Shown piece after piece: positions 16,881 through 44,212 of a DNA stretch of 44,212 bases; the stretch's first letter is position 1, and each line of letters starts with the position of its first letter. The stretch is taken from NCBI GenBank assembly GCA_900317155.1, contig ONFO01000027.1, positions 1-44,212 on the forward strand, read 5' to 3'. The notes below the pieces were generated by a model. The model was not told the origin of the DNA. It ran no database searches and worked only from the letters and a program-made list of their open reading frames with translations. The position numbers were made by a program, and so were the translations under genes. This stretch comes from an uncultured Bacteroidales bacterium. GTDB taxonomy: Bacteria; Bacteroidota; Bacteroidia; Bacteroidales; F082.

Positions 16881-18056
16881 CTATTCCTTCACTGCCACAC
16901 GCGCTGTATGGTTTCTCCCTTCCGCATCCGCAATCCGCAGCAGGTAAACGCCTTGTGGCAAGTCTGAAACGGGGATTTCATTCGTGTCGTGCACGGTCTT
17001 CACCAACTGTCCAAGGGCGTTGTAGACCTGAACTTCAACGGCCTCAACGCCATTGATGCGTATCCTGTCGACAGCCGGGTTGGGATAGATTGTCGTTATT
17101 AAGTTTTCTTGCTCATCAACACCATCAAAATCAACCTCTATGTAATTAAAAAACTCCGACCAATACTCCGCATTCCCATAATCCTCAATCGTTCCCTTTG
17201 GAATATAGATAGGGATGTTGCGATTGACACGCTCAAAAGTGTCGTCCCAAATATAGGGAGGATAAGAGGCCTTGACCGTCATAGAGGTAAGGCGAAACAG
17301 GTTGCGGAATGCTCCACCTTCAATTTCTGTCACCGTTGACGGCAGCTCCAATTCCGTGGGCTTGTGCAAAAACTCGAAAGCACAATAGCCAATGTATGTC
17401 ACGCCTTCCGGAATGTTGATGGAGGAAAAGCCGTAGCATGCCTCGAAGCATCCGCTCTCAATCAGGGTCATCTTGGGCGGCAGATACAAGGTGCCGTCGA
17501 AGCCGCACTCATTGAAACCATTGAAGCCGATGTATTCAACCGATTCGGGAATGACGAGGTCGCCCCTAAAATTCTCACATAAGTCAAATGCATTATTGTT
17601 GATTTCGACAAGCGATTCCGAAAGGGTCAGGCTCGAGAACCTTTTGCAGTTATGGAACGCCCATTCACCAATGCTTATAACGGAATTGGGGATGACCAAC
17701 GACCCTGTGAACCAACACCCCAAAAAGGCGCGGGGGCCAATCAACCTGACAGTATTGGGGATGACCAACGACCCGGACAAATCATTACTGAAGCAGCCTT
17801 TATTAAAAGCATCGGCACCAATAGCAACCACAGTATAATCCACAGAATTGTAGTTCACTGTCTCAGGAATGGTGACGCCACCCACATAATCCACCAAATC
17901 AAACATGGATTCGAGGAGAACCTCTGGTGGGTCGTAGGAGGTGATGATATACCCCAGTTTCTGCCCCGTTGGGCAAATTGAATAGAAATCGTAGGCCGAA
18001 GCCGAAATGCCCGTCATCAGCAGGGCAAGCAAAGTGTAAAGTCTTAAGTTTTTCAT
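16881..18056 (-). CDS. BspA-type LRR protein with T9SS sorting domain
   Basis: A 391-residue secreted protein with signal peptide (MKNLRLYTLLALLMTGISAS). From about 55 to 295 it has LRR_5 (BspA/TpLRR) repeats of about 23 residues, such as SLVIPNTVRLIGPRAFLGC, SLVIPNSVISIGEWAFHNC and DLVIPESVEYIGFNGFNEC. The last about 70 residues are a T9SS type A sorting domain (TIYPNPAVDRIRI, VQVYNALGQLVKTV, LPQGVYLLRIADAEG), so it should cross the outer membrane and be anchored on the surface. BspA-type LRR proteins bind host matrix or other bacteria; the actual partner is unknown. Its ATG overlaps the TGA of the upstream gene by four bases (ATGA), showing translational coupling. Last gene of its operon. 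Confidence 0.85.
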   Translation of the reverse strand: MKNLRLYTLLALLMTGISASAYDFYSICPTGQKLGYIITSYDPPEVLLESMFDLVDYVGGVTIPETVNYNSVDYTVVAIGADAFNKGCFSNDLSGSLVIPNTVRLIGPRAFLGCWFTGSLVIPNSVISIGEWAFHNCKRFSSLTLSESLVEINNNAFDLCENFRGDLVIPESVEYIGFNGFNECGFDGTLYLPPKMTLIESGCFEACYGFSSINIPEGVTYIGYCAFEFLHKPTELELPSTVTEIEGGAFRNLFRLTSMTVKASYPPYIWDDTFERVNRNIPIYIPKGTIEDYGNAEYWSEFFNYIEVDFDGVDEQENLITTIYPNPAVDRIRINGVEAVEVQVYNALGQLVKTVHDTNEIPVSDLPQGVYLLRIADAEGRNHTARVAVKE

Positions 18057-18901
18057 TGTTTTGTGATTTTGTCTGTATAAACCATTCCGTTCATATCTGT
18101 GATGCGAAGCAGGTAAATGCCGTGCGACAAGTCTGCAACGGAAATTTCATTGATATCACGCACAGTCTTCACCAACTGCCCGAGGGCATTATAAACTTGT
18201 ACTTCAGCAGGCCGAACGCCTTCGATGCGAACCGTCTCGGATGCTGGATTGGGGTATAAAGAAACCCTATTCTGTTGCTGTTTCCTTTCTTGAACAGACA
18301 CATTGTCAATATAACAAGTCTCAAAAACTTGATTTGCAAACATTTGCTCACCATCTTTGTATTCACACAACAGATGACTCCTGCACATTTCAGAGTAGTC
18401 TTTTAGAATTCCTATCGGAAGATAAGAGGGAAAACAGCCTTCCTGAAAGACCCAGCTGCTGAAACAATCTGTCAGATGTATCACCTTTTTCCCATCTTCA
18501 TAAGTCACATTGTAAACAATCGCATAACTGTCGCCATATTCATCAGTGTAATAGAAATTGTCGCCTACCGTCAGCGACATGTCGCAAATCAGCACCTTAT
18601 CTTCAAGTATGGGATTGTATCGGTAAAGTCTTCCTGTGTTGGTGTCTTCGGTGAAATAGAAGTCCTCGTACTCATAATTGTAACCATATTGTCCATGCGG
18701 AAATCCCTTAATATACTGGGTTCCATTGATATTGACGGTGTCTGCACTCCGTATCGTCAGATAGAATGTATGGCAGTAATCAATCATTTCCATATAAACA
18801 TTCAGTCGTGTGGAGTCGGCTGCAAAATAGGATTGATACCCTTGCGCCTGCATAGTGCCGCAAATGAGCGTCGCGGCAAGAACAAACAAATACTTTTTCA
18901 T
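18053..18901 (-). CDS. T9SS cargo protein, small family (paralogue of 36886-37746)
   Basis: A 282-residue secreted protein with signal peptide MKKYLFVLAATLICGTMQAQ, an unrecognised middle of about 190 residues with several cysteines (CHTFYLTI, LICDMSLTVGDNFYY, GCFPSYLPIG), and a type A sorting domain from about 213 (SLYPNPASETVRIEG, VQVYNALGQLVKTVR, LLRITDMNGMVYTDKI). Its architecture and phrases such as RLYRYNPILEDKVLICDMSLTVGD match the 286-residue cargo at 36886 (WKRYSIAHPETLLYDFTASVGD), so the two are paralogues. The stop overlaps the start of the LRR gene (ATGA). First gene of a two-gene operon with a promoter 43 nt upstream. No function is assigned to this middle domain. Confidence 0.75.
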   Translation of the reverse strand: MKKYLFVLAATLICGTMQAQGYQSYFAADSTRLNVYMEMIDYCHTFYLTIRSADTVNINGTQYIKGFPHGQYGYNYEYEDFYFTEDTNTGRLYRYNPILEDKVLICDMSLTVGDNFYYTDEYGDSYAIVYNVTYEDGKKVIHLTDCFSSWVFQEGCFPSYLPIGILKDYSEMCRSHLLCEYKDGEQMFANQVFETCYIDNVSVQERKQQQNRVSLYPNPASETVRIEGVRPAEVQVYNALGQLVKTVRDINEISVADLSHGIYLLRITDMNGMVYTDKITKQ

Positions 18902-18943
18902 GGCTGTTTCGTTTTAAGTGTTAGACATTTGTTTTCGCTTTCG

Positions 18944-18951: not shown

Positions 18952-19052
18952 TAACAAAAAACCACTAAAAAATCAACCAAAAGGCCAATTATAGATTTTC
19001 CTTTTGAATGCCTATTGAAAATCAATCGATTATAATCGGTATATATAGATTT

Positions 19053-20840
19053 TTACGCCTCCAAAAACGCCGAAATCGAGGCATTTCCCGTCTTTTTTCG
19101 TAGGTTGGAACGGTACTGTAGCACCGTGTTTTGGCTCAAACCCAGCAAATCCGCCTCCTCCTTCGCGCGGAATTGCAGGAACGAAAGCACGAAAAGTTGG
19201 GTCTCCGTCTTGGTCAGATTGGGGTAGGCAGCCGCCACCCGTTCCATGGCTCCGGGATAAGCCGCCTCAAACTCGTCCATGATGCGCTCCAAGCGGTTCG
19301 GCACCTTCGCACGGTAAAGGTCGGCCACCCGCTGAGGCAGCATCGCCCGCGCCTGCTGCAAGGCATCGTCCGCTTGCGTCTGTAGTTGCTGCAGCGCGTC
19401 ATCCACCGTCTGAAGCTGCTGCAAGGCATCGTTCACCTGCGTCTGAAGCTGTTGCTTCTCCTCATTCAAAGTCTGCGTTTCGGCCTCATGTTCCTTTCTC
19501 CGCTTGGCCATCCACCACCACAATCCAAGTCCCAAAACCAGCAGAACCACCACAACCGTCACCACACCCCGCACCAAGTGTCGCCGTGCCGCCAACTGTT
19601 CGGTTTGCCGTCTCTCTGCCTCAGCCTTCTCCTGTTCCCACTGCAAATGCTGCTGGAACATATCATTAAGTTGCGAAGCCCGTGCCTGGTTATTGGCAGC
19701 TGTGGCCCCTACTTCGGCAAGGATGAGAGCATACTGGTTGGCTCTCACCGTGTCGCCTTCTTCCTTGGCTATGGTGTGCAAATAGTTGGCCACATGTTTC
19801 CCTCTAACAGAGTCTTTTTCAACTACAATACTCCCAAAGGCCTTCGCGCTATCATATTGACCCATTAAATAATAGATGTACCCAATGGTCATACATCGGT
19901 TAATCCTTTCAGCCTCGTTAGAGGCTTGTTCAGCCATGCTTTTCAGGCTATCCAAGGCGGCTATGGTATCGTCATAATACAGGAATTTAAACAATGCCCT
20001 CGATGAGACAATATCCCTGTAAATCATGTTGTTCCTATCAGGCATCAATTCCAATGCCATATCATAGTAATAAGATGCACTATCCACCAATTGCAGTTTG
20101 TCATATTGCTTTCCGATAAAATAATATGTATTGGCAATCTTTTCGGACGAAGACTGCGCTTTTTTATCGTAAGCCAAAGACTGCTTGCCGCAATAAATGG
20201 CAGATTCCTGCATATATTGTGCGGAAAACAACTCCACAAGTCGGTTATAAGTCAAAGCCATAAACCGAGCCTTGTGTCCCACCAAAGCCTTCTCCTCAAA
20301 ATGTCCTTCCATCATCCGCAAGGCATTGAGGTATTCCCCGCAAGCCTCAATGAGGCTGTCGCGCTCGTAATACCCCACACCATTAATATAATGCGCCCGC
20401 GCCGCCAAAAACGCATCCCGCCTCTGTACGGACGCACCGCGTGCGTCCGCTTTACCGCGTGCGTCCGCATTACGCCCATCTGCAACATTCACAATCGAAT
20501 CAAAATAATGAACCGCCTTCAGCAGATCCTTTCTATTGCTTTGCCCATAATCATTCTTATAAAGCAGCTCCGCCACCAGTACCTGGCAATAATGCCCCTC
20601 AAACTCGTTGAGGCTGTCGGCCTCTGGGCTCCCCGCAAACTCCATCATCACCGCCAAGGCGCTGTCAGGCTGGTGCCACATGAGGGTGTCGATTTGAGAT
20701 AATACTAGGGTCGGCCCTTCGACGCTTCGACAAGGCTCAGCGACCACAGGCTCAGGGACCTCAACTTTAGTTGGTTTGGAGCAAGCCACCAGCATGGCCA
20801 GCTCAATCAGAAAGCTCACTATGTGCAAACACCATTTCAC
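19053..20840 (-). CDS. Membrane-anchored TPR-HTH transcriptional regulator (copy C)
   Basis: A 595-residue one-component regulator. I start it at the GTG at 20840 (MKWCLHIVSFLIELAMLVAC), which gives a lipobox with Cys20 matching the two paralogues; an in-frame ATG at 20888 would precede the promoter box. After the lipobox come TPR-like helices (about 40-390), a coiled-coil-prone stretch, one transmembrane helix (VVTVVVVLLVLGLGLWWW), a Gln-rich coiled coil (DALQQLQT repeats) and a C-terminal LuxR/GerE-like HTH (LTKTETQLFVLSFLQFRAKE, EADLLGLSQNTVLQYRSNLR). Topology implies a periplasmic TPR sensor and a cytoplasmic DNA-binding tail. It differs from its paralogues by a RNADARGKADARGA insert encoded by a palindromic repeat. 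It lies directly upstream of the 18901-16881 cargo operon, its likely target. Confidence 0.78.
   Translation of the reverse strand: MKWCLHIVSFLIELAMLVACSKPTKVEVPEPVVAEPCRSVEGPTLVLSQIDTLMWHQPDSALAVMMEFAGSPEADSLNEFEGHYCQVLVAELLYKNDYGQSNRKDLLKAVHYFDSIVNVADGRNADARGKADARGASVQRRDAFLAARAHYINGVGYYERDSLIEACGEYLNALRMMEGHFEEKALVGHKARFMALTYNRLVELFSAQYMQESAIYCGKQSLAYDKKAQSSSEKIANTYYFIGKQYDKLQLVDSASYYYDMALELMPDRNNMIYRDIVSSRALFKFLYYDDTIAALDSLKSMAEQASNEAERINRCMTIGYIYYLMGQYDSAKAFGSIVVEKDSVRGKHVANYLHTIAKEEGDTVRANQYALILAEVGATAANNQARASQLNDMFQQHLQWEQEKAEAERRQTEQLAARRHLVRGVVTVVVVLLVLGLGLWWWMAKRRKEHEAETQTLNEEKQQLQTQVNDALQQLQTVDDALQQLQTQADDALQQARAMLPQRVADLYRAKVPNRLERIMDEFEAAYPGAMERVAAAYPNLTKTETQLFVLSFLQFRAKEEADLLGLSQNTVLQYRSNLRKKTGNASISAFLEA
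20429..20468. repeat. Palindromic repeat inserted in frame in the TPR regulator
   Basis: CGGACGCAC-CGC-GTGCGTCCG at 20429-20449 is a perfect 9-bp inverted repeat. Part of it (CCGCGTGCGTCCGC, 20437-20450) is repeated at 20455-20468 with an 18-nt period. It encodes the low-complexity NADARGKADARG stretch absent from both paralogues. Confidence 0.65.
20717..20760. repeat. Interspersed TTCGACA(A)GGCTCAGCGACC element inside the regulator
   Basis: CTTCGACAAGGCTCAGCGACC, followed by a partial second copy (CAGGCTCAGGGACC), encodes part of the Pro/Val-rich linker just after the lipobox (VPEPVVAEPCRSVEGP). Related in-frame copies are at 20992, 30758 and 33372. Confidence 0.5.
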
Positions 20841-20954: not shown

Positions 20955-22478
20955 TTATTCCTTAATCCATTTCCCCGTTTCTACCCTAGATTTTGAACCT
21001 GTTGAAGGGTCGCCCGCATAAACCTTCCAAACATAAACGCCCTCAACCCAATCCGTTGCATCAATCGCCGTCACATGCTCCGTAAGGGCTTGGCCGTGGA
21101 TGAGCCTGCCTTTCAAGTCATACACTTCCACGCGGGCGTTCTGCAAGGCCGTGCGGATATTGAGCACATCCTTCCCTGGATTAGGATAGACAGTAGCCAC
21201 AGCAAAACCATGCGAATGCGCCTCCTCAATATTCAGAAAGTCTGAAACGGTAATTTTAATGATGCAGTTTTCAGCCGCATGAGTGTTGTCGTCCAGCCCG
21301 TCGCAATACACTAAGCAACCGCCATCGGGACAGGCAACTAGGCACTCAGCAATAAGATACTTTGACGGATGGACATAATAAATCTCGCCGTATTTGTTCA
21401 GGTCTTGATCCATGTAGGCGACATAGAGGTTGTGAGGTACTGCTCCATCCATGCCTCCAGCCATATATACCTCATCAGATGGGCCGAAATCGATTGTGTA
21501 TATGAGTCCGCCTTGACATACTGTCGGAGTATGTATACCCCAAGTGTAATGCGTCTGGACCATGTTTTCGTCATAAACCGACATTAGGATGTCTTGGTAG
21601 ATTTCAGGATTGTTGTTATAGGCTGGCACTGACCACTTGTTGATGGAGTAAGTCTTTCCGCTGTATCGGTTGACACGGAAATAGGCGTTGTCACAGCATG
21701 ATACAGGTGGATAGGAAAGTTGGTCAACATTCATAATAGCACCCACAAGGTTCAATTCGCTGTCAAGAGTTAAGCAACTATAGCCGTATGGACCATCTGT
21801 CCGCTGCATGATGATTCTGCAACCGAGGGAGTCGGGGGTGGTAACCAAGCCATGTCCCGACAGCAAATCAGGATAAGTATCAATAAGACTCACCGCATCA
21901 TACACATGCCCTGTATCATCAAACTTTACAGTCTTTATGCACATATTCTCGGTGTTGTATGATAGGACCGCTTCACCTTCTTTGCCAACAATGACGTTCA
22001 CGGTCTTATTCATCAGATGCCCATTAACTTCATAGAAATCGGAGCCGAACCAATCGTAATCCTCAAAGGTCAGACCCAAGTCCTCATGTATGATGGCTTT
22101 ATGGAAGGTGCAAGTATCACTGCCATCGTGTCTTTTCAAGAAAAAGAAGAAAGGCTCGCGGTCTTGGAAGCGGAAAATCTCTGTAATAAAAGGAGTAGCA
22201 GTATCAGCCAAAAACTCATCATTCCAAACTTGAACCGATGCCAGCACCTCGCCATCATCGCGCATTTTTTGAACAAAAACCACTGGCTTGTTGTCGTCGT
22301 TTGTCTTTGAGGCCAAAGTAAGTAATGTGGTTTCATCAATATAGTTCATGGCAAATACGACAGTATCTCCCGTTGACCGAATCTCTTCAAGATTATAAGG
22401 ATACTCTTGCGCTTGCATCGTCACCCCTCCCGCCATCAGCAGGAGCGCAAGCAGGATGTATAGTCTAATGTTTTTCAT
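20955..22478 (-). CDS. T9SS cargo protein, propeller-like family
   Basis: A 507-residue secreted protein. The signal peptide MKNIRLYILLALLLMAGGVT ends in MQAQ, as in many cargo genes of this array. The middle has no recognised domain but resembles a repetitive beta-rich surface protein and shares landmarks with 33339, 40795 and 42326: PDSLGCRIIMQR, CLTLDSELN, YSGKTYSINKW, TWGIHTP, FGPSDEVYMAGGMDG. It ends in a type A sorting domain (TVYPNPGKDVLNIRTALQNA, RVEVYDLKGRLIHGQ, GVYVWKVYAG, GKWIKE) with an extra SKSRVE-type insertion encoded by a degenerate copy of the interspersed repeat. The ATG overlaps the C10 protease TGA by four bases, so the two are translationally coupled. Surface-anchored; ligand unknown. 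Confidence 0.75.
   Translation of the reverse strand: MKNIRLYILLALLLMAGGVTMQAQEYPYNLEEIRSTGDTVVFAMNYIDETTLLTLASKTNDDNKPVVFVQKMRDDGEVLASVQVWNDEFLADTATPFITEIFRFQDREPFFFFLKRHDGSDTCTFHKAIIHEDLGLTFEDYDWFGSDFYEVNGHLMNKTVNVIVGKEGEAVLSYNTENMCIKTVKFDDTGHVYDAVSLIDTYPDLLSGHGLVTTPDSLGCRIIMQRTDGPYGYSCLTLDSELNLVGAIMNVDQLSYPPVSCCDNAYFRVNRYSGKTYSINKWSVPAYNNNPEIYQDILMSVYDENMVQTHYTWGIHTPTVCQGGLIYTIDFGPSDEVYMAGGMDGAVPHNLYVAYMDQDLNKYGEIYYVHPSKYLIAECLVACPDGGCLVYCDGLDDNTHAAENCIIKITVSDFLNIEEAHSHGFAVATVYPNPGKDVLNIRTALQNARVEVYDLKGRLIHGQALTEHVTAIDATDWVEGVYVWKVYAGDPSTGSKSRVETGKWIKE
20992..21012. repeat. Degenerate interspersed repeat in a sorting domain
   Basis: TTTGAACCTGTTGAAGGGTCG is a diverged form of the GGTCGTTGAGCCTGTCGAA-type elements at 30758 and 33372. 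It encodes the GDPSTGSK loop just before the terminal GKWIKE. Confidence 0.4.
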
Positions 22479-25024
22479 TGTTTCGTGATTTTATTCGTGT
22501 AAACTTTCCCTTCCGCATCCTTAATGCGCAGCAGGTAAAGCCCTTCCGGCAGGCCGCTCACATTGACTTCGTTGGTGCCACGGACCACCTTTACCAGTTG
22601 GCCCAAGGCGTTGTAGACCTGGATTTCAGCCGCTTCAAGGCCATCAATCCGCAGGGTCTCCGAGGCAGGATTGGGATAGACCTTCATCTTACCCGCTTCG
22701 GTTTCGTCCACCCCATCTACCGACCAATACACCCTCAGGAAAAACTCGAACTCATTGTATTTCGACCGCGCGGGAGCCGAATAGCAGTCGATGGCTTGGT
22801 AATAGGCCACCACCTTGTAAAGATAGAAGGTCTCGTCCTCCAATGGAGTGTTGTCGGTATAGGAAGTGGAGCCGGCACCCAATGTCTTGATTTGCTGCCA
22901 ATTCATATCCGCTTCCTTGGTACGGTAGATGTAGAACCCTGAAAGGCCGTCATTGGAATGGGGCGCTTCCCAGGTGAGTTTTATCTTATTATTGTTGGTC
23001 ATCTCATACCAGAGGTTGGTGGCAGGCTGGCAGTCGTCGCCGATGGTGGCACAAGCCTCGTTGGTTGGCTCGCTTTCGCCCGAAGCGCAAAAAGCGGTCA
23101 CAAAGTAGCAATGTCCGCCATGAGTCGCCGTTTCATCGACAAAAGCAGCCGAGTTGTCTCTCACCGTCTGAAGCAGTTGCCCGTCACGATAAACATTATA
23201 ATCTGTGGATTCACCATAGGAAGTCCATGCCAGCACCACATGCTCATCCTCGGCAAAAGCGTACAAATCAGTGGGTGCATCGCAATCCGTGCCATTGCCG
23301 CAACTGTTGTTGGTTTGCAGGAAAACACCGTCATCGATGCCTTCCAAAGCACCCGAATACGAATAAACGACCTGATTGTCAGCATCCTTGATGACAAAAC
23401 TCACATCGCTAACCGTACTGCTTCCTTTGGACCAAGCGAACGAGACATGACCCAGGGGCACCGCAACAGAGAGTGTCTCGCTGCTTGAGTGCGCCGTGAC
23501 CGACTCCATCACCTGCATTGCGTTGTTAATCACTTGTATGGAAGCGCCCTGCCATCCGTTGAAGAAGGTGGTCCCTGCCACGATAGTCCAAGTGCAGGAA
23601 GGCCCGAAGCGCACACCGCTTTCGGTGGCAATCCTTCCGTGGAGACCGTTGTTCACCGCATAGACCTGATAATCGTGCAAGCCATAAAACGGCACTTCGT
23701 CGGTGATTTCCATGGCCGCGCCTGGAGCAACATCGTCTTGGGTATAAACCACCCTGCCGTCACGCTTGACGACGATTTGGTCGATATGGGTCAAATTGCT
23801 ATTGTTCAATGACTTTGTTGGATTGTTCCAATGCATGGTACAGGTGTATGAATCATCGGAAAGCGGCTGCACGCTCAAGTTAGTGGGTTCCTTTGGTGTA
23901 GCATTGTAGACGCCAGAAGGAACGGCGTCGGCAATCATCTTTTGTGCCAGGTTCCAAGTCTGGTTGTAGGTTTGCAGGTTGTCGATGCTGAACCAGCCAT
24001 CGAGGGAACCGCCCCAGCTCCAGTTGATGTGAAACAGTCCGTTGTCGTCGTAGCCATCGCAAATGAACGAATGGCCCATGCTTCCTCCATCGGTACCTGC
24101 ATACAAAATCGGAATGCCCATGTCCAAGGCATCGCGCATCATGGCCACCCATTCATCGTAGGGATAATCGTCCCTAAACAGATTGTGCGAAGTGCCATAA
24201 CCGAAATAGGAGCTCATCGCCGGTGGGATGCTTTGGTGCAAAGCACCGCTAGCCATAGCACCATAATTCATGTCAACACTCACGCCGCAATGATATATAA
24301 GGAGGGCAACATATTGATTGTCATCATTCAGCGATTCGGGCATTTCGTCCCAATGGTAAGTGGTTGCACCGAAATTTGCAGAGAGCGTGCCGTAAAGGTA
24401 ACTGTTGTATGAATGTGAGCCTGTGCCGTGTTCAGGATAGTTCCAATACTTCATCACCTGTGCCATCGAAGTGGCCACACAGCCCGCGTAGGCATTGCCG
24501 CAAGGTCCAGCCTCGTCTTTCGGGCAATATGCGTTATAATAACAGTCTTGGTCCCAATGCGTGGCAACCAAAGGTTGGACAACCACTGATCTCAAGGCTT
24601 GCGTTTTGCCGCAGCGTTCAAGGTTCTCCCATTCTTGGGCAATCACGAAATCGGCTTTTTTCAGGTTTTCTTCCGCAAAATCAACAGATTGCCCATATCC
24701 TTCCAGGAAATAGGCCAATCCATCAGGGATGTTTTCAGTGTTGAAAGCACCTGTTTCGGCATAGCCGAGAATGGGGCTGGTAAGGTCGCTGGCCGAGACG
24801 ATGACGAAACCGCCTGAAGCACCATTGAAGACATGATACGATGCTCTGCCGCTTTCCGTAACGGCTGTGTAGACCCACTTCAACTCCGTGTTGTTCTTGA
24901 AGTTGGCCTCGACAAACTTCGCGCCCAAGGCCTTGGCGCGTTCCATGCCGACCGTTCCGCCAAGCAATGGCATTGAGGCCATCAGCAGAACGGCAATAAG
25001 GCTGTAAAATCCGTTGTGTTTCAT
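22475..25024 (-). CDS. C10-family (streptopain-like) cysteine protease with T9SS sorting domain
   Basis: An 849-residue secreted protease. Order: signal peptide (1-23), Spi_C10-type propeptide (about 27-115, RAKALGAKFVEANF and HVFNGASGGFVIVSASD), peptidase C10 domain (about 150-370) with catalytic Cys182 in GCVATSMAQVMKYW, His318 in MGHSFICDGYDDNGLFHINW and the following WSWGG, then beta-rich FN3-like modules (about 375-460, 585-670 and 675-765), and a type A sorting domain (about 778-849, KVYPNPASETLRIDG to YTNKITKQ). C10 enzymes such as streptopain and the PrtT group degrade host proteins after propeptide removal. Catalytic residues are intact, so activity is likely. It starts 18 nt after the beta-helix gene and overlaps the next gene by ATGA, so it is the middle of a three-gene operon. 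Confidence 0.9.
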   Translation of the reverse strand: MKHNGFYSLIAVLLMASMPLLGGTVGMERAKALGAKFVEANFKNNTELKWVYTAVTESGRASYHVFNGASGGFVIVSASDLTSPILGYAETGAFNTENIPDGLAYFLEGYGQSVDFAEENLKKADFVIAQEWENLERCGKTQALRSVVVQPLVATHWDQDCYYNAYCPKDEAGPCGNAYAGCVATSMAQVMKYWNYPEHGTGSHSYNSYLYGTLSANFGATTYHWDEMPESLNDDNQYVALLIYHCGVSVDMNYGAMASGALHQSIPPAMSSYFGYGTSHNLFRDDYPYDEWVAMMRDALDMGIPILYAGTDGGSMGHSFICDGYDDNGLFHINWSWGGSLDGWFSIDNLQTYNQTWNLAQKMIADAVPSGVYNATPKEPTNLSVQPLSDDSYTCTMHWNNPTKSLNNSNLTHIDQIVVKRDGRVVYTQDDVAPGAAMEITDEVPFYGLHDYQVYAVNNGLHGRIATESGVRFGPSCTWTIVAGTTFFNGWQGASIQVINNAMQVMESVTAHSSSETLSVAVPLGHVSFAWSKGSSTVSDVSFVIKDADNQVVYSYSGALEGIDDGVFLQTNNSCGNGTDCDAPTDLYAFAEDEHVVLAWTSYGESTDYNVYRDGQLLQTVRDNSAAFVDETATHGGHCYFVTAFCASGESEPTNEACATIGDDCQPATNLWYEMTNNNKIKLTWEAPHSNDGLSGFYIYRTKEADMNWQQIKTLGAGSTSYTDNTPLEDETFYLYKVVAYYQAIDCYSAPARSKYNEFEFFLRVYWSVDGVDETEAGKMKVYPNPASETLRIDGLEAAEIQVYNALGQLVKVVRGTNEVNVSGLPEGLYLLRIKDAEGKVYTNKITKQ

Positions 25025-25042
25025 TTTAAAGCTGTTTTTGAA

Positions 25043-27553: not shown

Positions 27554-27559
27554 AGCCTA

Positions 27560-33334: not shown

Positions 33335-33338
33335 TGTA

Positions 33339-34920: not shown

Positions 34921-34928
34921 CAAAATTA
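34921..34928 (-). promoter_or_regulatory. -7 box for the 34892-32414 cargo operon
   Basis: Minus-strand TAATTTTG followed by CG, with a leader of about 25 nt to the ATG. Confidence 0.55.
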
Positions 34929-35044
34929 AATGAAAAACCAGCCATCACCCCAAACGAGACATGGAAGTACACAAAATATTCTTTTGTTTGAATTACACCA
35001 AATTGATATTCAATAAAATAAAAAATCAAAAATACACATTTTTC

Positions 35045-36697: not shown

Positions 36698-36702
36698 GGC
36701 CG

Positions 36703-36741: not shown

Positions 36742-36889
36742 GCATTATTAGAAGCGTACACCTTCCAAACATAAACGCCCTCAGTACAATCCGTTGCATC
36801 AATCGCCGTCACATTCTCTGTGAGGGCTTGACTGTGGATGAGCCTGCCGTTGATGTCGTACGCAGTGCTTAAAATCTTGTTGCTTTCAT
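36742..36889 (-). pseudogene. Internally deleted T9SS cargo gene fused to regulator A promoter region
   Basis: Starts with ATG at 36889, overlapping the TGA of the 37746-36886 gene (ATGA), and encodes MKATRF then TAA: the shared cargo signal-peptide start. Within a few bases a second piece begins in another frame: AYDINGRLIHSQALTENVTA, IDATDCTEGVYVWKVYAS, the middle of a sorting domain. The rest of the gene between these ends, including any cargo domain, is missing, and the terminal GKWIKE is lost where the sequence joins the duplicated promoter block of regulator A (about 36742). Clear remnant of a full cargo gene that was last in the right-hand operon. Confidence 0.8.
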
Positions 36890-37746: not shown

Positions 37747-37874
37747 AGTATCATTATTTATCCATTTTTCCTAATTTGGTTCCTTTGCCATTAGTGACTA
37801 AAGCCATCCCATTCTCCAGCGCGTCGCCAAACGCATGGAAGCGGGATGGGGAGGCTATAGAAACCTCCAAATGT
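37747..37874. other. Intergenic segment with weak hairpin and possible sorting-domain tail
   Basis: CCATCCC (37804-37810) and GGGATGG (37843-37849) can pair across a 32-nt loop, without a T-run. The minus-strand frame ending at 37754 reads VTNGKGTKLGKMDK, which resembles a degraded GKEAELGKWIKE sorting-domain end. Neither is strong. Confidence 0.25.
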
Positions 37875-38381
37875 TCATTGAAGAGTCTGAACTGGTGCAA
37901 ACACTGAACTGCAATGAAAATCGTTGCCACCTTCAACACCCATGTCTTTACCTTCTGCTTCGGTTATGACAAGATACTGTGTATCGTCATTCATATAAAT
38001 CGTGCTGAAACGGATATAACCGTCAATCACGACATTACCTTTCGAAGCCCCGAGATGTTCAGCGACCTTACTCCGCACTTCCTTTGGCAATGAAATCAAA
38101 TACTCGCCATAGTTACTATTGTTTGTCTTCTTGCAGGTATATGTTTCTCCTGAAACAACGGTTTCACCATTATACTCAATGCTAATCTTGTTATCATCTT
38201 CAAAAGATAAGACGAGACTTTGAGTGGTTTCTGGATGAATGACACCAACAACGCCTCCCACCGTGGTTTGGTGCCATTGCCATGAGCCTTTCAGTTGTGG
38301 CACTTGTTCAACCAAATTGATTTTTTCACATGAGCAGAACGCAAATAAAGCGATAACTGCGATTAAAACTACTTTTTTCAT
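37875..38381 (-). CDS. Small lipocalin-like lipoprotein
   Basis: A 168-residue lipoprotein started at 38381 (MKKVVLIAVIALFAFCSC), which places the lipobox Cys (FCSC) at a normal distance; an in-frame ATG eight codons upstream is less likely. The mature part begins EKINLVEQVPQLKGSWQWHQ, TTVGGVVG and LVLSFEDDNKISIEYNGETV, a pattern common to small Bacteroidota lipocalin-like lipoproteins that form an eight-stranded barrel. It has no sorting domain and is the only non-T9SS, non-regulator gene in the right-hand array. It lies 45 nt after 38427-40766 on the same strand with no obvious promoter, so probably in the same operon. The end FHCSSVFAPVQTLQ is unusual and may be slightly altered. Ligand unknown. 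Confidence 0.65.
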   Translation of the reverse strand: MKKVVLIAVIALFAFCSCEKINLVEQVPQLKGSWQWHQTTVGGVVGVIHPETTQSLVLSFEDDNKISIEYNGETVVSGETYTCKKTNNSNYGEYLISLPKEVRSKVAEHLGASKGNVVIDGYIRFSTIYMNDDTQYLVITEAEGKDMGVEGGNDFHCSSVFAPVQTLQ

Positions 38382-38426
38382 CTTTGTGGTTATTTGATTT
38401 GACAATACTTGCTTTATATATCATAG

Positions 38427-40766
38427 TTACTCCTTAACCCACTTCCCTCTTTCTGCTTCCTTGCCATCGGCAATCACCTTCCAAACATAAACCCCTTCAG
38501 CCCATCCTCCAGCATCAATCCCCGTCACATTTTCCGTAATGGCTTGTCTATGAACCAGCCTCCCATTCATATCATACACCTCCACCCAAGCATCCCGCAA
38601 CCCCGTGCGGATATTCAGTACATCCTTCCCCGGATTAGGATAAACCGCAAATGCATTTTCGCCGTTTTCGCCGACACTTTCAAAATCGAAATGGGCTTTC
38701 AAAGCGGTAGAGTGTTCAAGGTTGAAAGTGTAGGTTTGGTCGTAGGAAACGATGTCGCCGTCAATAGCCCAAAACGCGAACTCATGGCCATTGTTTGGAG
38801 TGGCTTGGACGATGCTTTCGGGATTGTCGCAGTCACCGTGTTTGACGATGGAACAGGTGCCATGATCGGGATGGTCAACACTGACCGTGAGCTTGAAAGG
38901 CACTTCGCTGATGTTGGTGAAAGCGCTCCATTGCGAATTATTTTGGTAAGCTTCCATTGTACCACAAGGCACCTTAAGCGGGATGTCGGTGTTTACATCG
39001 TAGAACGAGTATTTTACCAAAGGTGGCGTTTCTGCCCACGAAGTGATGCTTTCCAAACCAGTACAATAATCGAACGCAAAATAGTCGAGGGTTTCAACCG
39101 ACGGTGCCAGTTCAAGGTTTTTTATCTTTGAGCAACACTCGAAAGCACTCTGTCCTATTGTTTTAATGCCATTGGGAATTGTTAACAGCCCTGCGAGTTT
39201 GTTGCAACCATAGAAAGCGGAATCGCTTATTTTGGTCATGGGACAGTCGTCGGGTATGGAGAGGGATTTTATGTTGGTATTACCATTGAAAGCGCAGTCG
39301 GCAATGCCTCTCGTGGTTTCAGGCAGTTGCAAGGCAAGGTTTGAGGCGTTGCCTTTGTAGCCAAGGCACCAGTCGTGAAGCATCATAACGCCATTGGGTT
39401 GGTCGGCTTCCCATCCTGTTTCGGCAAAGGCATAGCTGCCAATGTGAGACACTTGTTCGGTGATTTCAATGTCGTGCATGCCAGTGCAGCCATAGAAAGC
39501 CTTGCGCATAATGTTTACATTGCTAACGGCATTTTTGATTTGAAGGCTGCTGAATCCGGTGCAACCTCTAAAGGCATCGGGTTCGATTATACTCACCGAG
39601 ACGGGCAGCACGAGGTCGCCAGTCAGACCTATGCAGCCTTTGAACGCTTCGGCATCGATTCTTTGCAGCGAGGCAGGAAACACAAGTTCGCCAGTTAAGC
39701 CAGTGCAATCCTTGAAGGCCATTCCTCCTATACGTATCAGGTTTTCAGGCAACTGCAACGTCCCCGTCAAGCCGGTGCAACCCTCGAATGCGCCTTCCTT
39801 GTTGAAACAGTCAGGTGGTAATTGCCCTATCTTTGTAACGGTATTGGGAATGACAACCGAAGTAAGCCCGACACATTCCTTGAACGCACCGTGTGGGATT
39901 TCATTGATGGATTCGGGAATGACCAATTCGCCAGTGAAACCGTAACAATAGGCAAAGGCACTTGCCCCGATCCCAACCACACTTGAAGGGATGTTCAATG
40001 TGCCAGTTAGGTTCTCGCAGTCGTAAAACGCCATAATGTCGATAAAGGTGACTGATTCGGGAATGACGAGTTCCCCGGTTAGTCCGCTACAATAGCGGAA
40101 CGTTCCGTTTCCGATGTTTTCAATGTTGTCGTGAAGAACAATGGTGCCATCAAAACCAGTACAATGGGCGAAGATGCCGTTTTCGAGGTGCGTAATGGAG
40201 ATTGGTATGACAATGTCTCCGGTGAAACCACTACATGCACGAAATGCCTCTGCGCCAATAAACGAACATTGAGGCAAAGCCAACGGTCCTGTGAATCCAC
40301 TACAGCCAATAAAGGCTTTTCTGTCAATTATGTCAAGGCTTTCGGGAAGTGCCAAGATACCCTGAAAGTTACAACAGTTATTGAAAGCCAAATATCCAAC
40401 GTAAACCAGTTGATTAGAGAGTGTCAGTGTGCCGTGGAAGCCCGAGCAACACTCAAAAGCTTCGGTCTCAATCCGACGCACCGTGTTTGGGATGACCAAG
40501 TCGCCCGAAAGTGACTCGCAGTTTTGGAACGCCCTTTCGCCGATTTCAGTAACGGTGTAGGTGACACCCTCGTGCGAAACGGTTTCGGGAATGGTAAGAG
40601 AACCTTGCGCCGAGGTGCCGTTGGCATGTCCGCTCACGCTAACCTCCGGCGGATTGGCACTGATGATGGTGTAACGAAGATCGCCTTCCTGGAAGTCGTA
40701 GGCGAAAGCTTGCAGTACTGCAAATGTCAGTAAGAATGACAGCATCAATTTGTTGAGTGTTTTCAT
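38427..40766 (-). CDS. Large BspA-type LRR protein with T9SS sorting domain
   Basis: A 779-residue surface protein. Signal peptide MKTLNKLMLSFLLTFAVLQAFA, then at least twenty LRR_5/TpLRR repeats of about 23 residues (about 50-610; for example GDLVIPNTVRRIETEAFECC, GELVIPESVTFIDIMAFYDC, GTLNIPSSVVGIGASAFAYC), a short linker, a divergent InlB B-repeat-like module (about 628-700, VDHPDHGTCSIVKHGDCD, NGHEFAFWAIDGD) and a type A sorting domain (about 705-779, AVYPNPGKDVLNIRTGLRDA, GKWVKE). It begins YDFQEGDLRYTIISANPPEV like the smaller LRR protein at 16881 (GYIITSYDPPEV), so they are paralogues of different length. LRR length change by repeat loss or gain is expected here. BspA proteins bind host matrix or co-aggregate. 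Confidence 0.87.
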   Translation of the reverse strand: MKTLNKLMLSFLLTFAVLQAFAYDFQEGDLRYTIISANPPEVSVSGHANGTSAQGSLTIPETVSHEGVTYTVTEIGERAFQNCESLSGDLVIPNTVRRIETEAFECCSGFHGTLTLSNQLVYVGYLAFNNCCNFQGILALPESLDIIDRKAFIGCSGFTGPLALPQCSFIGAEAFRACSGFTGDIVIPISITHLENGIFAHCTGFDGTIVLHDNIENIGNGTFRYCSGLTGELVIPESVTFIDIMAFYDCENLTGTLNIPSSVVGIGASAFAYCYGFTGELVIPESINEIPHGAFKECVGLTSVVIPNTVTKIGQLPPDCFNKEGAFEGCTGLTGTLQLPENLIRIGGMAFKDCTGLTGELVFPASLQRIDAEAFKGCIGLTGDLVLPVSVSIIEPDAFRGCTGFSSLQIKNAVSNVNIMRKAFYGCTGMHDIEITEQVSHIGSYAFAETGWEADQPNGVMMLHDWCLGYKGNASNLALQLPETTRGIADCAFNGNTNIKSLSIPDDCPMTKISDSAFYGCNKLAGLLTIPNGIKTIGQSAFECCSKIKNLELAPSVETLDYFAFDYCTGLESITSWAETPPLVKYSFYDVNTDIPLKVPCGTMEAYQNNSQWSAFTNISEVPFKLTVSVDHPDHGTCSIVKHGDCDNPESIVQATPNNGHEFAFWAIDGDIVSYDQTYTFNLEHSTALKAHFDFESVGENGENAFAVYPNPGKDVLNIRTGLRDAWVEVYDMNGRLVHRQAITENVTGIDAGGWAEGVYVWKVIADGKEAERGKWVKE

Positions 40767-40799
40767 AGGATTATTTTTTATTTAGGATTATTTTTTATT
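40766..40799. repeat. 17-bp perfect tandem duplication at a gene junction
   Basis: TAGGATTATTTTTTATT occurs twice head to tail, covering the 3' end of 40795-42321 (with its stop) and the leader of the LRR gene. Elsewhere in this array junctions are only about 4 nt long. Confidence 0.7.
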
Positions 40800-42321
40800 C
40801 TTTTATCCATTTTCCGTTTTCCGCTAATTTGCCGTTTGATATCACCTTCCAAACATAAGCCCCCTCACTCCAATTCGTCGTATTGATGGCCGTGACATTT
40901 CCCGTTATCTCCTGCCTATAAACCATTCTTCCATTCAAATCATACAACTCCACCCAAGCATCCTTTAACCCCGTCCTGATATTCAGCACACCCTTCCCCG
41001 GATTAGGATAAGCCACCGCGACGGCGAAGCCTTGGGTATGAGCTTCCTCAATGTTGTCAAAAGCCTCCTTTGGCACCTTGAAAACCGCATCCCATCCCGT
41101 GATGTTATCATAATCGAGATGATCCACGCTAAACACACAATCGTTTGTGTTTGCACAAATTCCTGTTGGCATCCTTCCGATCATCCTCCCGACTTCGTCA
41201 AATTGATGGTATATCTCGCCTATTTTGTTCAGGTTCTCATCAAATTGAACTATATAGAGGTTTCTGCCAATAGACCCGTGGGGGATTAATGGATCCATCG
41301 TGCCTATCATATACACATCGCCCTCAGGCCCAAAGCCTATTGACCCATCAAGGTATTGAGCGGCGAAACTTCTGTCTTCTGTGTGAATGCCCCAAGTATA
41401 GTTGAATTGGTTAAAATCCTCGTCGAAAGCACTCATGAATATGTCTTCGTAAGTGGCAGGATTTCCGTTCATCGCGGGGCAGGTAAAGGTGCTGATGGAA
41501 TAGGCTTTGCCCGTGATGGGATTATAACGCAAGTTGGCTGGAAAGTAACAACTCAAAACGGGGGGATAGGCAAGATTGTCGATGTTATGCTTCTGGGCAA
41601 TGACGTTCAACTCGGCATCGAGGGTAAGGCAATCATATATGACTTCATTGGTTGATTCAGGGCATCGCATAATCACCCTACAGCCCACCGAGTCTATTGA
41701 GGACATCATAAATGCGTAGTAGCTACAAGGCCCTTCAAGCGTCGTTTCCGCACAGATATTACCTGAAACATCAAATCTCATGACGCGCAGCGAAAGAGGA
41801 AAGGAAGTCGGGTCCTCAAGCGGGAAGGAGAACACGACGCTCCCATCCTTGTTCAACACCGCATTGGTGCTGGCCCAGGAGCCAGAGTGCTCCCAGTAAT
41901 TCATCGATTCCCATTTCCCATATTCCTTGCGGCTGACTGAAAAGTCGTCATGAATTGTCGCGAGATACAGGCAAACAGAGTCGTTCGTATAGGTCAGGAA
42001 AAACATACATGGCTCCCCTTCGTCGTTCCTGTCAAAAGAAAAAGAATGAACCCAAACCACTTCATCTATTTTATCTTTCGGCCAAAAATACAGTGTGTCA
42101 ATATAATGACCTTCATCATCAATCTTGAGGATTGACCCATAAGTGCCAGGAGTTTCATAATAACGAAAGAGTATTTCGTTACCCGTGGCGTTTTGAAAGA
42201 TGGGGGTGTACAATCCACCGCTCTCGTGTTCGATAATCGGTTGAAGTTCTTGCGCTTGCATCGTCACCCCTCCCGCCATCAGCAGGAGCGCAAGCAGGGC
42301 GTAAATTCTTGTCGTTTTCAT
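40795..42321 (-). CDS. T9SS cargo protein, propeller-like family
   Basis: A 508-residue secreted protein with signal peptide MKTTRIYALLALLLMAGGVT, MQAQ. It is a close paralogue of 20955 and 42326: IDSVGCRVIMRCPESTNEVI, YDCLTLDAELNVIAQ, YNPITGKAYSISTFTCP, YEDIFMSAFDEDFNQFNYTW, GIHTED, FGPEGDVYMIGTMD, LYIVQFDENLNKIGEIYHQF. These repeated motifs suggest a beta-propeller with about six blades, but no named domain. Sorting domain about 432-508 (VAYPNPGKGVLNIRTGLKDA, WVELYDLNGRMVYRQ, YVWKVISNGKLAENGKWIKE). It lies 4 nt downstream of 42326-43792. Function unknown beyond predicted surface display. Confidence 0.75.
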   Translation of the reverse strand: MKTTRIYALLALLLMAGGVTMQAQELQPIIEHESGGLYTPIFQNATGNEILFRYYETPGTYGSILKIDDEGHYIDTLYFWPKDKIDEVVWVHSFSFDRNDEGEPCMFFLTYTNDSVCLYLATIHDDFSVSRKEYGKWESMNYWEHSGSWASTNAVLNKDGSVVFSFPLEDPTSFPLSLRVMRFDVSGNICAETTLEGPCSYYAFMMSSIDSVGCRVIMRCPESTNEVIYDCLTLDAELNVIAQKHNIDNLAYPPVLSCYFPANLRYNPITGKAYSISTFTCPAMNGNPATYEDIFMSAFDEDFNQFNYTWGIHTEDRSFAAQYLDGSIGFGPEGDVYMIGTMDPLIPHGSIGRNLYIVQFDENLNKIGEIYHQFDEVGRMIGRMPTGICANTNDCVFSVDHLDYDNITGWDAVFKVPKEAFDNIEEAHTQGFAVAVAYPNPGKGVLNIRTGLKDAWVELYDLNGRMVYRQEITGNVTAINTTNWSEGAYVWKVISNGKLAENGKWIKE

Positions 42322-42325
42322 CGTA

Positions 42326-43792
42326 TTATTCTTTTATCCATTTTCCGTTTTCCGCTTCTTTGCCGTTTGATATCACCTTCCAAACATAACCCCCTTCAGC
42401 CCATCCTCCAGCATCAATCCCCGTCACATCCTCCGTAATGGCCTGCCTATGAACCAATCTTCCATTCAAATCATACACCTCCACCCAAGCATCCCGTAAC
42501 CCCGTGCGGATATTCAGCACATCCTTCCCTGGATTGGGATAGGCAATGGCCACCTTCAGGCCGTTGTCGTGGGCTTCGTCGACATTCCAAAACGAGTCTG
42601 CGAGAATGTGGTAGATATTGTCGTTAATGGTCGTGATAAGGCAGTCGCCATTAGGCATGGCACAAATCTCTATAGATCCCTGCCATTGGCCATCGAATGG
42701 TTTATAGATTTCGCTGATTTTGTTCAAATCCTCATCAAATCGGGCGACATAAAAACCTTCCTGATAATAGATATCCTGAACCAACGCACACATTGCAATG
42801 CTGCCATCTGGAAAGAAGTCTATTGACTTCCAATAAGCGCGTTGGTCTTCACCAGGATTGTCGACAGTCAATGCCCATTTGTCGATGTGTGACATTTCCT
42901 TATCGAACTTGGCTATGATCGCATTTTGATAACCAGACTGCCCGTTGGCAACATATCTAAAGCTGCCCACCACATATAGACAACCCGATATAGGATGTTT
43001 GGCAACGTAAGGAAAAACGATGCTTTGACACCAGCCAGGCAAAGGGAAATCGTTATAGATTTCATCATGCAGCAAGGTGGTGTCAAGGTTGAAATCCAAA
43101 TTGAAGCAACGTGTTTTGACAGGCTGTTCATGAATATCGCATCCGCCTAAAAGGTAGCCCGTAGAATCTGCATTGAGAGCGAAAAGCCTTTCAGGGTCGA
43201 AGAGTACGGAAGTAAAGTACCTATCTGCAAGCACATTACCCCATCTGTCAAACCGAATGATACGGTGACGGTCAGCTGCGTTCTGCCCTAATTGCTCATT
43301 GGTGAAATAACTCACCGCAAAAATGCTATCGCTCTCGATGATGAATTGAGGATCCATATAATGAACGGTAGAAACACCTGTGCCACTAAGCAAAACAGTT
43401 CCAGTTTCGACCACCAACAAATCCTCGTCAATGTCACCAACGGCAATCCAAAGGGAATCGCCTCTCATCTTGTGGTAAATGATGCTTGGGAAACCATTTT
43501 CCTTCATGAACAACAATTGTTGGTTTGCCATAGAGAACCCTCCATCGTTGAGGTGGTTTTGTGCGACATACTCCAATTCCGTGCCGTCAGTTTTAATGCG
43601 GCACAAAGCCATAGTACCGTTTTCTTCGCCACGCATGGTAACCAAACACTCGTCTTCAGTCAAGGAAAGCAGGGCAAGATAGCCGTGGGTGTCTCCAATG
43701 AGTTCCACTTCCAATTGTTCTTGTGCTTGCATCGTCACCCCTCCCGCCATCATCATCAGCGCAAGCAGGGCGTAAATTCTTGTTGTTTTCAT
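42326..43792 (-). CDS. T9SS cargo protein, propeller-like family
   Basis: A 488-residue secreted protein with signal peptide MKTTRIYALLALMMMAGGVT, MQAQ, whose DNA is nearly identical to that of 40795. The middle is recognisably of the same propeller-like family (DRHRIIRFDRWGNVLADRYF, YLLGGCDIHEQPVKTRCFNL, KSIDFFPDGSIAMCALV, YVARFDEDLNKISEIYKPFD, MPNGDCLITTINDN) but diverged in length. Sorting domain about 412-488 (IAYPNPGKDVLNIRTGLRDA, WVEVYDLNGRLVHRQ, GGYVWKVISNGKEAENGKWIKE) is almost identical to those of 38427 and 40795. It starts 4 nt after the ancestral stop of the frameshifted gene to its right, so it belongs to the same operon. Confidence 0.75.
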   Translation of the reverse strand: MKTTRIYALLALMMMAGGVTMQAQEQLEVELIGDTHGYLALLSLTEDECLVTMRGEENGTMALCRIKTDGTELEYVAQNHLNDGGFSMANQQLLFMKENGFPSIIYHKMRGDSLWIAVGDIDEDLLVVETGTVLLSGTGVSTVHYMDPQFIIESDSIFAVSYFTNEQLGQNAADRHRIIRFDRWGNVLADRYFTSVLFDPERLFALNADSTGYLLGGCDIHEQPVKTRCFNLDFNLDTTLLHDEIYNDFPLPGWCQSIVFPYVAKHPISGCLYVVGSFRYVANGQSGYQNAIIAKFDKEMSHIDKWALTVDNPGEDQRAYWKSIDFFPDGSIAMCALVQDIYYQEGFYVARFDEDLNKISEIYKPFDGQWQGSIEICAMPNGDCLITTINDNIYHILADSFWNVDEAHDNGLKVAIAYPNPGKDVLNIRTGLRDAWVEVYDLNGRLVHRQAITEDVTGIDAGGWAEGGYVWKVISNGKEAENGKWIKE

Positions 43793-43796
43793 CGTA

Positions 43797-44212
43797 TTAT
43801 TGTTTTATCCATTTTCCGGTTAATAGTTCTTTTTCAGCATTGTAAACTCGATAGAAATACACCCCCCGCCTTCAATCCCGAAACGCCCACAGTAAGCACA
43901 TTCCCCTCGCCTCGGACAAACCTATCCAAGCAAGGGCGACCAAGGCCATCCGTAATGCTGATGCGGCAGCCATCAATGGTTCCCACTTCGCTAAGGTCAA
44001 TGTTCAGAACATCCTTTGCCGGATTAGGATACGCCTTGCCTTGAATCTCCATCACAGGCATCTCCTTGACCGCAGTGGGTATCGGGTTCATCTCCTCACG
44101 GGTCAGTTTCATAACCTTGCTTGCAGAATATGAACTCATACAATTTGCACCTCCATTCATGGCCAAGAGACAACCACCATCGTTGTAGGGTAAAACGAAT
44201 ATGGGGAAATAG
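43797..44212 (-). pseudogene. T9SS cargo gene, 5' beyond window, frameshifted in its sorting domain
   Basis: The gene enters from the right edge (reading FPIFVLPYNDGGCLLAMNGG, of the propeller-like cargo family) and has a sorting domain AYPNPAKDVLNIDLSEVG...GVSGLKAGG. It then goes out of frame in a run of six G (minus strand; plus-strand C6 at 43862-43867) and stops at 43834 as VFLSSLQC. With five G the frame would continue as AGVYFYRVYNAEKELL then TGKWIKQ to TAA at 43797-43799, 4 nt before the next ATG, exactly the junction spacing seen at 33339/33334 and 42326/42321. So a one-base insertion removes the last strand of the sorting domain. Could be phase variation, a decaying gene, or an assembly error. 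Confidence 0.85.

What the first reader, a model, noticed from the sequence alone, without database searches (positions are those of the whole stretch)
16881..44212. Regulator-plus-cargo modules: three membrane TPR-HTH proteins each heading a T9SS cargo block
Copy A (36697-35045) precedes cargo 34892-30725. Copy B (30628-28961) would precede cargo 26623-20955 but for the inserted defence pair. Copy C (20840-19053) precedes cargo 18901-16881. All three have lipobox, TPR region, one transmembrane helix, coiled coil and LuxR-like HTH. I propose a family of one-component envelope sensors, each controlling its adjacent surface cargo, to my knowledge not described as a system.
Basis: partly seen in the sequence, partly recalled or inferred. 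Interest (0 to 1): 0.72.

Follow-up and report, generated by a model that had tools for sequence, protein, structure and literature searches.

The report
Plug-in sensor switches for surface proteins
A bacterium with relatives in the stomachs of cattle-like animals carries dozens of membrane proteins that look like self-contained sensor-switches, often sitting in front of a set of surface proteins with a matching DNA docking site between, which suggests a mix-and-match system for controlling what the cell displays.

Summary
Window copies A, B and C are lipobox-TPR-TM-coiled coil-NarL/GerE-type HTH proteins, and the eight named cargo genes carry type IX sorting domains. The genome has 41 family matches, about 35 genes. 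New: a candidate operator lies between regulator stop and cargo promoter. For the window's HTH class it is two AAATCTGTACT-like sites around TTGATTATCAA; for 37 of 76 others a direct repeat with 10-11 bp period, about 50 bp upstream of the -7 box. Repeat similarity follows HTH similarity more than neighbouring DNA does. In the own genome 13 of 14 motif hits lie beside regulators. Copy B has lost its operator: it lies behind the inserted defence pair, next to an 86-bp copy of the regulator's 3' end. Most likely these are membrane-anchored one-component activators of adjacent surface cargo; binding, activation and signal are inferred.

The parts
35045..36697 (-). Regulator copy A: lipobox, TPR (periplasmic by inference), TM, coiled coil, GerE/NarL-type HTH (class 1)
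35030..35043 (-). operator site 1 after copy A (AAAAATGTGTATTT)
35003..35013 (-). operator palindrome TTGAATATCAA
34965..34977 (-). operator site 2 (ATTTTGTGTACTT), starting 49 bp upstream of the -7 box
34921..34928 (-). predicted -7 box TAATTTTG of the module A promoter
   Evidence: TAnnTTTG consensus recalled
30725..34892 (-). module A cargo, three genes with type IX sorting domains (33339-34892, 32414-33334, 30725-32230)
28961..30628 (-). Regulator copy B (class 1); the class-1 operator is missing after its stop codon (only loose single-site regex matches, no palindrome)
26936..28861 (-). inserted AAA ATPase / TOPRIM pair; the ATPase best matches HEC-01A, AbiLi and AriA models, the TOPRIM protein only weakly AbiLii
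26771..26856 (-). 86-bp remnant of a regulator 3' end, 83.7% identical to the end of copy B (coordinates read by hand)
26709..26776 (-). module B operator: AAAAATCTGTACTT (26763-26776), TTGATTATCAA (26737-26747), AAAAATCTGTACTT (26709-26722); -7 box at 26666-26673
20955..26623 (-). module B cargo: beta-helix protein, C10 peptidase with I69 inhibitor domain, third cargo, all with sorting domains
19053..20840 (-). Regulator copy C (GTG start; class 1 HTH on a different TPR type)
18987..19052 (-). module C operator: AAATCTATATAT (19041-19052), TTGATTTTCAA (19015-19025), AAAATCTATAATT (18987-18999); -7 box at 18944-18951
16881..18901 (-). module C cargo, two genes with sorting domains
36886..43792 (-). 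stretch upstream of copy A with four further sorting-domain genes (36886-37746, 38427-40766, 40795-42321, 42326-43792) and one without; any regulator heading them would lie beyond the contig end

Best explanation
Each regulator is a membrane-anchored one-component activator. The lipidated N-terminus and TPR superhelix face the periplasm, and one TM helix and a coiled coil lead to a cytoplasmic DNA-binding domain. That domain docks on a dedicated operator lying between the regulator's own stop codon and the -33/-7 promoter of the adjacent surface-cargo operon. A signal read by the TPR domain switches on that one operon. Shown by sequence: architecture, adjacency, repeats at a preferred promoter spacing, and repeat sequence following the HTH. 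Inferred: binding, activation rather than repression, periplasmic sensing, and the nature of the signal.
For: Adjacency: cargo within the first three downstream genes in 12/19 own and 41/73 relative regulators against 2/35 controls; as the very first gene in 33/92 against 0/35. Direct repeats: in 107 regulators the 120 bp after the stop hold a repeat of at least 8/9 at lag 10 in 31 and at lag 11 in 16, expected 2.4 and 2.3; in a set thinned for near-identical downstream DNA (93 of 107) 26 and 14; inside the coding ends of the same 93 genes 0 and 2; after response regulators 1/38 and 0/38. Spacing: with no spacing filter, offsets of strong repeats to TAnnTTTG pile up at 48-54 bp (one repeat can add several neighbouring offsets). 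In 17 of 24 class-1 regulators a site-2 match starts 48-49 bp upstream of the box (16 in the regex list and copy A in the window list). HTH similarity against repeat similarity rho 0.39, against spacer 0.19 and 5' flank 0.16; partial rho 0.39 given flank (0 of 2000 permutations reach it) and 0.38 given spacer. Motifs in the own genome: class 1, 4 hits, 3 beside a regulator end or remnant, reversed control 0; class 2, 10 hits, all beside regulator genes, reversed control 2. At one shared chromosomal locus in six MAGs the HTH allele matches the operator allele in 6 of 6, while two types of first downstream gene occur with both alleles. TM segment in 63/63, at least as much positive charge on the HTH side in 61/63, lipobox pattern in 47/63 regulators that are intact and score 350 bits or more. 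The genome has SprA.
Against: No expression or binding data. 39 of 92 regulators have no sorting-domain gene among the first three downstream genes. Five weaker own-genome members (L032, L037, L038, L039, L056) fell out of the count by profile score, and none has a same-strand cargo gene directly after it; with them the own count is 12 of 24. 39 of 76 non-class-1 regulators have no repeat passing the spacing filter. Copy B and L139 lack the class-1 operator and L169 its first site; 7 of 24 did not give a site-2/box pair in the regex list or window list. Four loci with unlike DNA-binding ends share TTCCAACA-type repeats (winged type L157, L162; HTH type L124, L165), so the mapping is not strict. 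At the shared locus HTH and operator are so close that linkage alone could keep them together, and in two of the six (L222, L227) the regulator reads as two overlapping frames. 7 of 7 BT3442-type relatives show no repeat of 8/9 or more (L258 with only 110 bp to look at), and 6 with downstream genes show no clear cargo, one weak 18.7-bit match in L257. The HTH falls below Pfam's gathering score.
Confidence: 0.74

Rival explanations
1. The regulators mark a recombining repeat family; cargo sits beside them because cassettes are swapped there, and the 3' repeats are recombination sites rather than operators.
For: Regulator genes share patches of up to 96% DNA identity, and at least five contigs end inside one (L045, L047, L052, L054, L055); two inserts (window defence pair, C37 Kinase-PolyVal gene) are flanked by 86-bp and 66-bp repeats of a regulator 3' end; downstream genes differ at one shared locus.
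Against: Recombination does not explain the ~50 bp distance from repeat to -7 box, the 10-11 bp period, or repeat similarity following the HTH where flanks are unlike. Both can be true together.
Confidence: 0.12
2. The operators are bound by a different, shared factor (for example an ECF sigma or PorX-like regulator), and the TPR proteins are accessory export or surface-assembly factors.
For: TPR domains often mediate protein contacts (recalled); a PorY-PorX-SigP cascade is involved in T9SS regulation in Porphyromonas gingivalis (PMC4800418, start of abstract seen in the listing).
Against: One shared factor would give one motif; here the motif changes with the HTH class, and copy C ends in a NarL-type DNA-binding fold.
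Confidence: 0.07
3. The regulators repress rather than activate their cargo.
For: The sequence does not show the sign of control; the class-1 operator spans about 68 bp and could support looping (inference).
Against: The sites lie upstream of the predicted promoter core instead of covering it, as expected for activators (positional rule recalled).
Confidence: 0.12

Closest known systems
BT3442 family (NF053779; Bacteroides BT_3442)
   Same: TPR protein with C-terminal HTH heading a block of genes; BT_3442 to BT_3433 are described as a putative operon rich in lipoproteins, with BT_3441 homologous to the 3d33 structure (PMC2954219, passages read). Four of 7 relatives fetched here (L254-L257) are followed by a small DUF3244-like gene, judged by eye
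   Different: Window copies score 35.3, 35.2 and 21.8 bits against a cut-off of 940; no 10-11 bp repeat of 8/9 or more and no clear T9SS cargo was seen there. The paper calls BT_3442 a multi-domain protein with TPR motifs; the word 'regulator' does not occur in its main text
ToxR/CadC-type membrane one-component regulators (recalled)
   Same: membrane-anchored, periplasmic sensor and cytoplasmic DNA-binding domain in one protein, no phosphorelay
   Different: order reversed (sensor N-terminal, HTH C-terminal), lipobox, TPR sensor, NarL-type instead of winged HTH in the window copies
NarL/FixJ/LuxR response-regulator output domain
   Same: fold of the 90-residue C-terminus (VpsT, LiaR, StyR, FixJ and GerE lead the list)
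   Different: no receiver domain found; tethered through a TM helix and coiled coil; Foldseek E-values 0.12 or higher, though probability is 0.97 or more for 39 of the top 40
PorY-PorX-SigP control of the T9SS (PMC4800418, start of abstract listing)
   Same: regulates T9SS-related genes
   Different: a two-component system and sigma factor acting on T9SS component genes; here one regulator per adjacent cargo block
RRNPP/Rap peptide sensors
   Same: TPR superhelix resembling Rap-Phi3T (TM-score 0.62 on the target, 0.40 on the query; other TPR proteins rank higher by E-value)
   Different: Rap and RRNPP proteins are cytoplasmic (recalled); here predicted periplasmic and membrane-tethered; no ligand known

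Membership tests
BT3442 family (NF053779) | score over the curated cut-off of 940 bits | tested here: not met
   35.3, 35.2 and 21.8 bits
DUF6377 (PF19904) | score over the gathering cut-off of 36.7 bits | tested here: not met
   23.9 bits (copy C), 14.9 (copy B), none listed for A
GerE / LuxR DNA-binding domain (PF00196) | score over the gathering cut-off of 23.5 bits | tested here: not met
   19.0, 21.2 and 13.7 bits
GerE / LuxR DNA-binding domain (PF00196) | NarL/GerE-type helical fold | tested here: met
   AlphaFold pLDDT 90.7; 48 of the 50 PDB matches shown are NarL/LuxR-type proteins by their descriptions, two are sigma factors; best E-value only 0.12
membrane one-component transcription factor | sensor and DNA-binding domain in one chain with a TM helix between | tested here: met
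   predicted only:
membrane one-component transcription factor | binds DNA and changes transcription of a target | not testable with these tools
   only indirect: operator tests
T9SS type A cargo (TIGR04183 / PF18962) | C-terminal sorting domain over the cut-off | tested here: met
T9SS-bearing organism | SprA/Sov present | tested here: met
   TIGR04189 over cut-off, C28, one open frame of 2517 aa; other T9SS parts not searched

The most novel reading that the evidence does not exclude
A three-part, mix-and-match signalling system in one Bacteroidales lineage: interchangeable TPR sensors, HTH-plus-operator pairs that stay matched, and interchangeable surface cargo. In this genome it has grown to about 35 copies beside only eight response-regulator matches, and the sensor may read the export state of its own cargo in the periplasm.
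Probability: 0.4. Interest if true: 0.86.

Novelty: new variant of a known kind. Interest (0 to 1): 0.74.

Why it matters
How T9SS bacteria choose which of more than a hundred surface proteins to make is, to my knowledge, largely open; the best-known regulators act on the secretion machine (recalled). Here many cargo blocks appear to carry their own switch with a readable docking site, so the regulator-to-target map can be predicted from sequence and tested with single parts. The natural variation (same locus, two HTH/operator alleles, two kinds of downstream gene) offers ready-made specificity experiments, and the family would be a large addition to known one-component signalling.

Tried and rejected
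Class-2 motif first written wrongly (2 hits against 1 for the reversed control); corrected. Rfam and tRNA scans of the window found nothing. Reading the window as three intact modules was rejected: copy B has no operator. The defence pair is not a regular part of the system: among the ORFs of the window and 109 fetched loci P0007 has no other match and P0008 one (L107, 74% over 89 aa, beside that regulator). That the operator is general to TPR-TM-HTH proteins of Bacteroidales is not supported (0 of 7). Autoregulation: one own-genome motif hit lies upstream of a regulator (C23:130844); the other 13 of 14 do not. RNA folding of the intergenic region was not done.

Rows dropped and how counts were made: own genome, 41 matches at E 0.01, some weak, grouped by hand into about 35 genes; 29 regions with about 32 genes fetched, the other three are in the window. 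30 own frames pass the profile at E 1e-15; 19 of these have an intact 3' end and 2 kb of downstream sequence. Relatives: of 102 non-own matches I fetched 80 regions covering about 83, leaving out mainly fragments at contig edges; 73 regulator frames entered the count. Genes split by frameshift count as two rows in L152 and L168, and the fused frame L169 15602-18832 is counted as a regulator. The repeat count uses 107 frames with an intact 3' end and at least 60 bp after it; the HTH-repeat test uses the 37 of 76 non-class-1 frames (score 100 or more) that passed the spacing filter. One of 39 response-regulator matches was not fetched, and 3 of the 38 fetched have under 2 kb of room. Cargo in fetched loci was called with an HMM that I built from window cargo and iterated, not with TIGR04183 itself. 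Genes in fetched loci are longest-ORF calls. The class-1 regex is loose: it also matches single stretches after copy B.

Full report
WHAT IS THERE. All eight named cargo genes have type A sorting domains. An AlphaFold model of copy C (22-row alignment, mean pLDDT 75.9, pTM 0.57) shows a helical repeat region (about residues 43-361), a long helix (364-447) that contains the TM segment, a second long helix (458-510) read as coiled coil, and a compact helical C-terminus. Foldseek matches it to TPR superhelices. The last 90 residues alone give pLDDT 90.7 and match NarL/FixJ/LuxR-type domains with weak E-values but high probability. The sequence profile agrees: EsrB C-terminal domain, E 0.0027.

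THE FAMILY. The window is contig 41 of a 3.80 Mb genome in 65 contigs. That genome has 41 matches to the family at E 0.01, about 35 genes by my grouping (27 matches at E 1e-40), eight PF00072 matches at E 1e-12, and at least 150 sorting domains (150 scored of 231 candidates). SprA is present. Relatives at E 1e-40 occur in 17 of 17 other same-genus genomes and 1 of 12 genomes of other families; at E 1e-60 in 3 of 98 genomes drawn over the order, own included. The 28 loci of named relatives come from uncultured Bacteroidales or Bacteroidia MAGs, including bacterium F082 and samples titled abomasum or reticulum of buffalo, yak and goat.

ADJACENCY. Among regulators with intact 3' ends and at least 2 kb of downstream sequence, a sorting-domain gene is among the first three same-strand genes in 12 of 19 (own) and 41 of 73 (relatives), and is the very first in 8 and 25. 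Response-regulator controls from five of the same genomes: 2 of 35 and 0 of 35 (Fisher p 2.5e-8 for all against control; related genomes are not independent, so this p is too small). Counting five weaker own members that the profile dropped, the own figure is 12 of 24. Many of the others are followed by a small secreted protein (three tested match DUF3244, two over the cut-off), in some loci with cargo behind it.

THE OPERATOR. Directly after the regulator stop and before the cargo promoter lies repeated DNA whose letters depend on the HTH class. Class 1 (24 regulators, window A, B and C among them): AAAAATCTGTACTT-like site, TTGATTATCAA palindrome, second site, then the promoter; in 17 of 24 site 2 starts 48-49 bp upstream of a TAnnTTTG box. 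Copy B and L139 lack the operator, L169 its first site. Other classes: tandem repeats with a 10 or 11 bp period, for example AAATCCGCAC, TGCAACTTTT, AAAATTCCCGC. Of 107 regulators, 31 have such a repeat at lag 10 and 16 at lag 11 against 2.4 and 2.3 expected from shuffles; other lags from 6 to 44 range from 0 to 7. After removing near-identical downstream regions: 26 and 14 of 93. Without any spacing filter, offsets from strong repeats to the box cluster at 48-54 bp; 37 of 76 non-class-1 regulators have a repeat of 7/9 or more at 44-58 bp.

DOES THE OPERATOR BELONG TO THE HTH? In those 37, HTH similarity predicts repeat identity (rho 0.39) better than it predicts the promoter spacer (0.19) or the 5' leader (0.16); the partial rho is 0.39 given the leader (0 of 2000 permutations reach it) and 0.38 given the spacer. 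In pairs with leader identity under 0.55, mean repeat identity over five bins of rising HTH similarity is 0.45, 0.42, 0.50, 0.61, 0.71, while the spacer goes from 0.37 to 0.44. In the own genome the class-1 two-site pattern hits four places, three beside a regulator end or the remnant and one on contig 12, where no family match was found (reversed control 0); the class-2 pattern hits ten, all beside regulator genes or pieces of them (reversed control 2). At one locus shared by six MAGs (upstream gene 93.6-96.3% identical), two HTH alleles go with two operator alleles in 6 of 6, yet each of two kinds of first downstream gene occurs with both: a sorting-domain gene in L209 and L214, and a 166-aa gene without one in L210, L211, L222, L227. 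Linkage may contribute, since HTH and operator lie within about 100 bp; in L222 and L227 the regulator is split into two frames. Counter-evidence: winged-type regulators L157 and L162 share TTCCAACA-type repeats with HTH-type L124 and L165.

MODULARITY. Over the whole protein copy C is 26% identical to A and B but 48% and 44% to L228 and L232, whose HTH is of class 2. In the last 90 residues it is the reverse: 47% and 55% to A and B, 22% and 26% to L228 and L232. Sensor and output have been recombined. Regulator genes share patches of up to 96% DNA identity, and at least five contigs end inside them. Two long relatives tested (L046, L155) carry winged HTH domains instead.

COPY B AND THE DEFENCE PAIR. 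The pair (the ATPase matches HEC-01A, AbiLi and AriA models best) lies between copy B and a remnant that is an 83.7% copy of B's last 86 bp. The remnant is followed by operator and promoter; copy B has no such operator. A TATTTTTG box (28831-28838) could serve the pair as its own promoter. A second case, a Kinase-PolyVal gene after regulator C37, is flanked by a 66-bp, 95% repeat that includes the operator. Regulator 3' ends may thus act as an insertion or exchange point.

WHAT IS KNOWN. Nine searches of the open-access library found no account of TPR-TM-HTH regulators tied to T9SS cargo; this covers only that library and those terms. The nearest described relative, BT_3442, is called a protein with TPR motifs in PMC2954219 (passages read). 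Of seven BT3442-type genes in other Bacteroidales, four are followed by a small DUF3244-like gene by eye, with further secreted genes on the same strand in L254 and L255; none has an operator-like repeat of 8/9 or more, and none of six with downstream genes has clear T9SS cargo (one 18.7-bit match in L257). So the layout may be old and the T9SS use and operators lineage-specific.

STATUS OF EACH STEP. Shown from sequence: anatomy, copy number, adjacency, operator-like repeats, spacing, dependence on HTH class, the displaced operator of copy B. Inferred: DNA binding, activation, periplasmic sensing, signal, one-to-one control.

Noticed in passing
window 26771-28861: AAA/TOPRIM pair inserted at a regulator 3' end with an 86-bp flanking repeat; a second insert of the same kind (Kinase-PolyVal gene) lies in L043 6667-7449, and L090 has the same first downstream gene.
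   Followed up: partly
window 22475-25024: Cargo with a C10 (streptopain-type) peptidase and I69 inhibitor domain plus sorting domain.
   Followed up: no
L169 15602-18832: A 1076-aa open frame matches the regulator profile and also holds a beta-helix with a sorting domain: possible regulator-cargo fusion.
   Followed up: partly
L046 2959-5430, L155 3652-6111: Long regulators keep TPR and TM but end in a winged HTH (HTH_24) instead of the NarL type.
   Followed up: partly
L110 3989-4381, L119 3971-4363, L115 2455-2844 and others: A small DUF3244-type secreted protein is often the first gene after the regulator, also by eye in four BT3442-type neighbourhoods.
   Followed up: partly
window 36543-36893: A further open frame with a sorting-domain match overlaps the start of copy A: possibly a degenerate cargo end between modules.
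   Followed up: no
L053 end, L036 and L038 starts: A 97-bp stretch shared by three contigs, in L053 directly after an interrupted regulator gene: possible insertion sequence.
   Followed up: no
L051 region, G000:C23:130844-130860: One class-2 operator motif lies upstream of a regulator gene: possible autoregulation.
   Followed up: no
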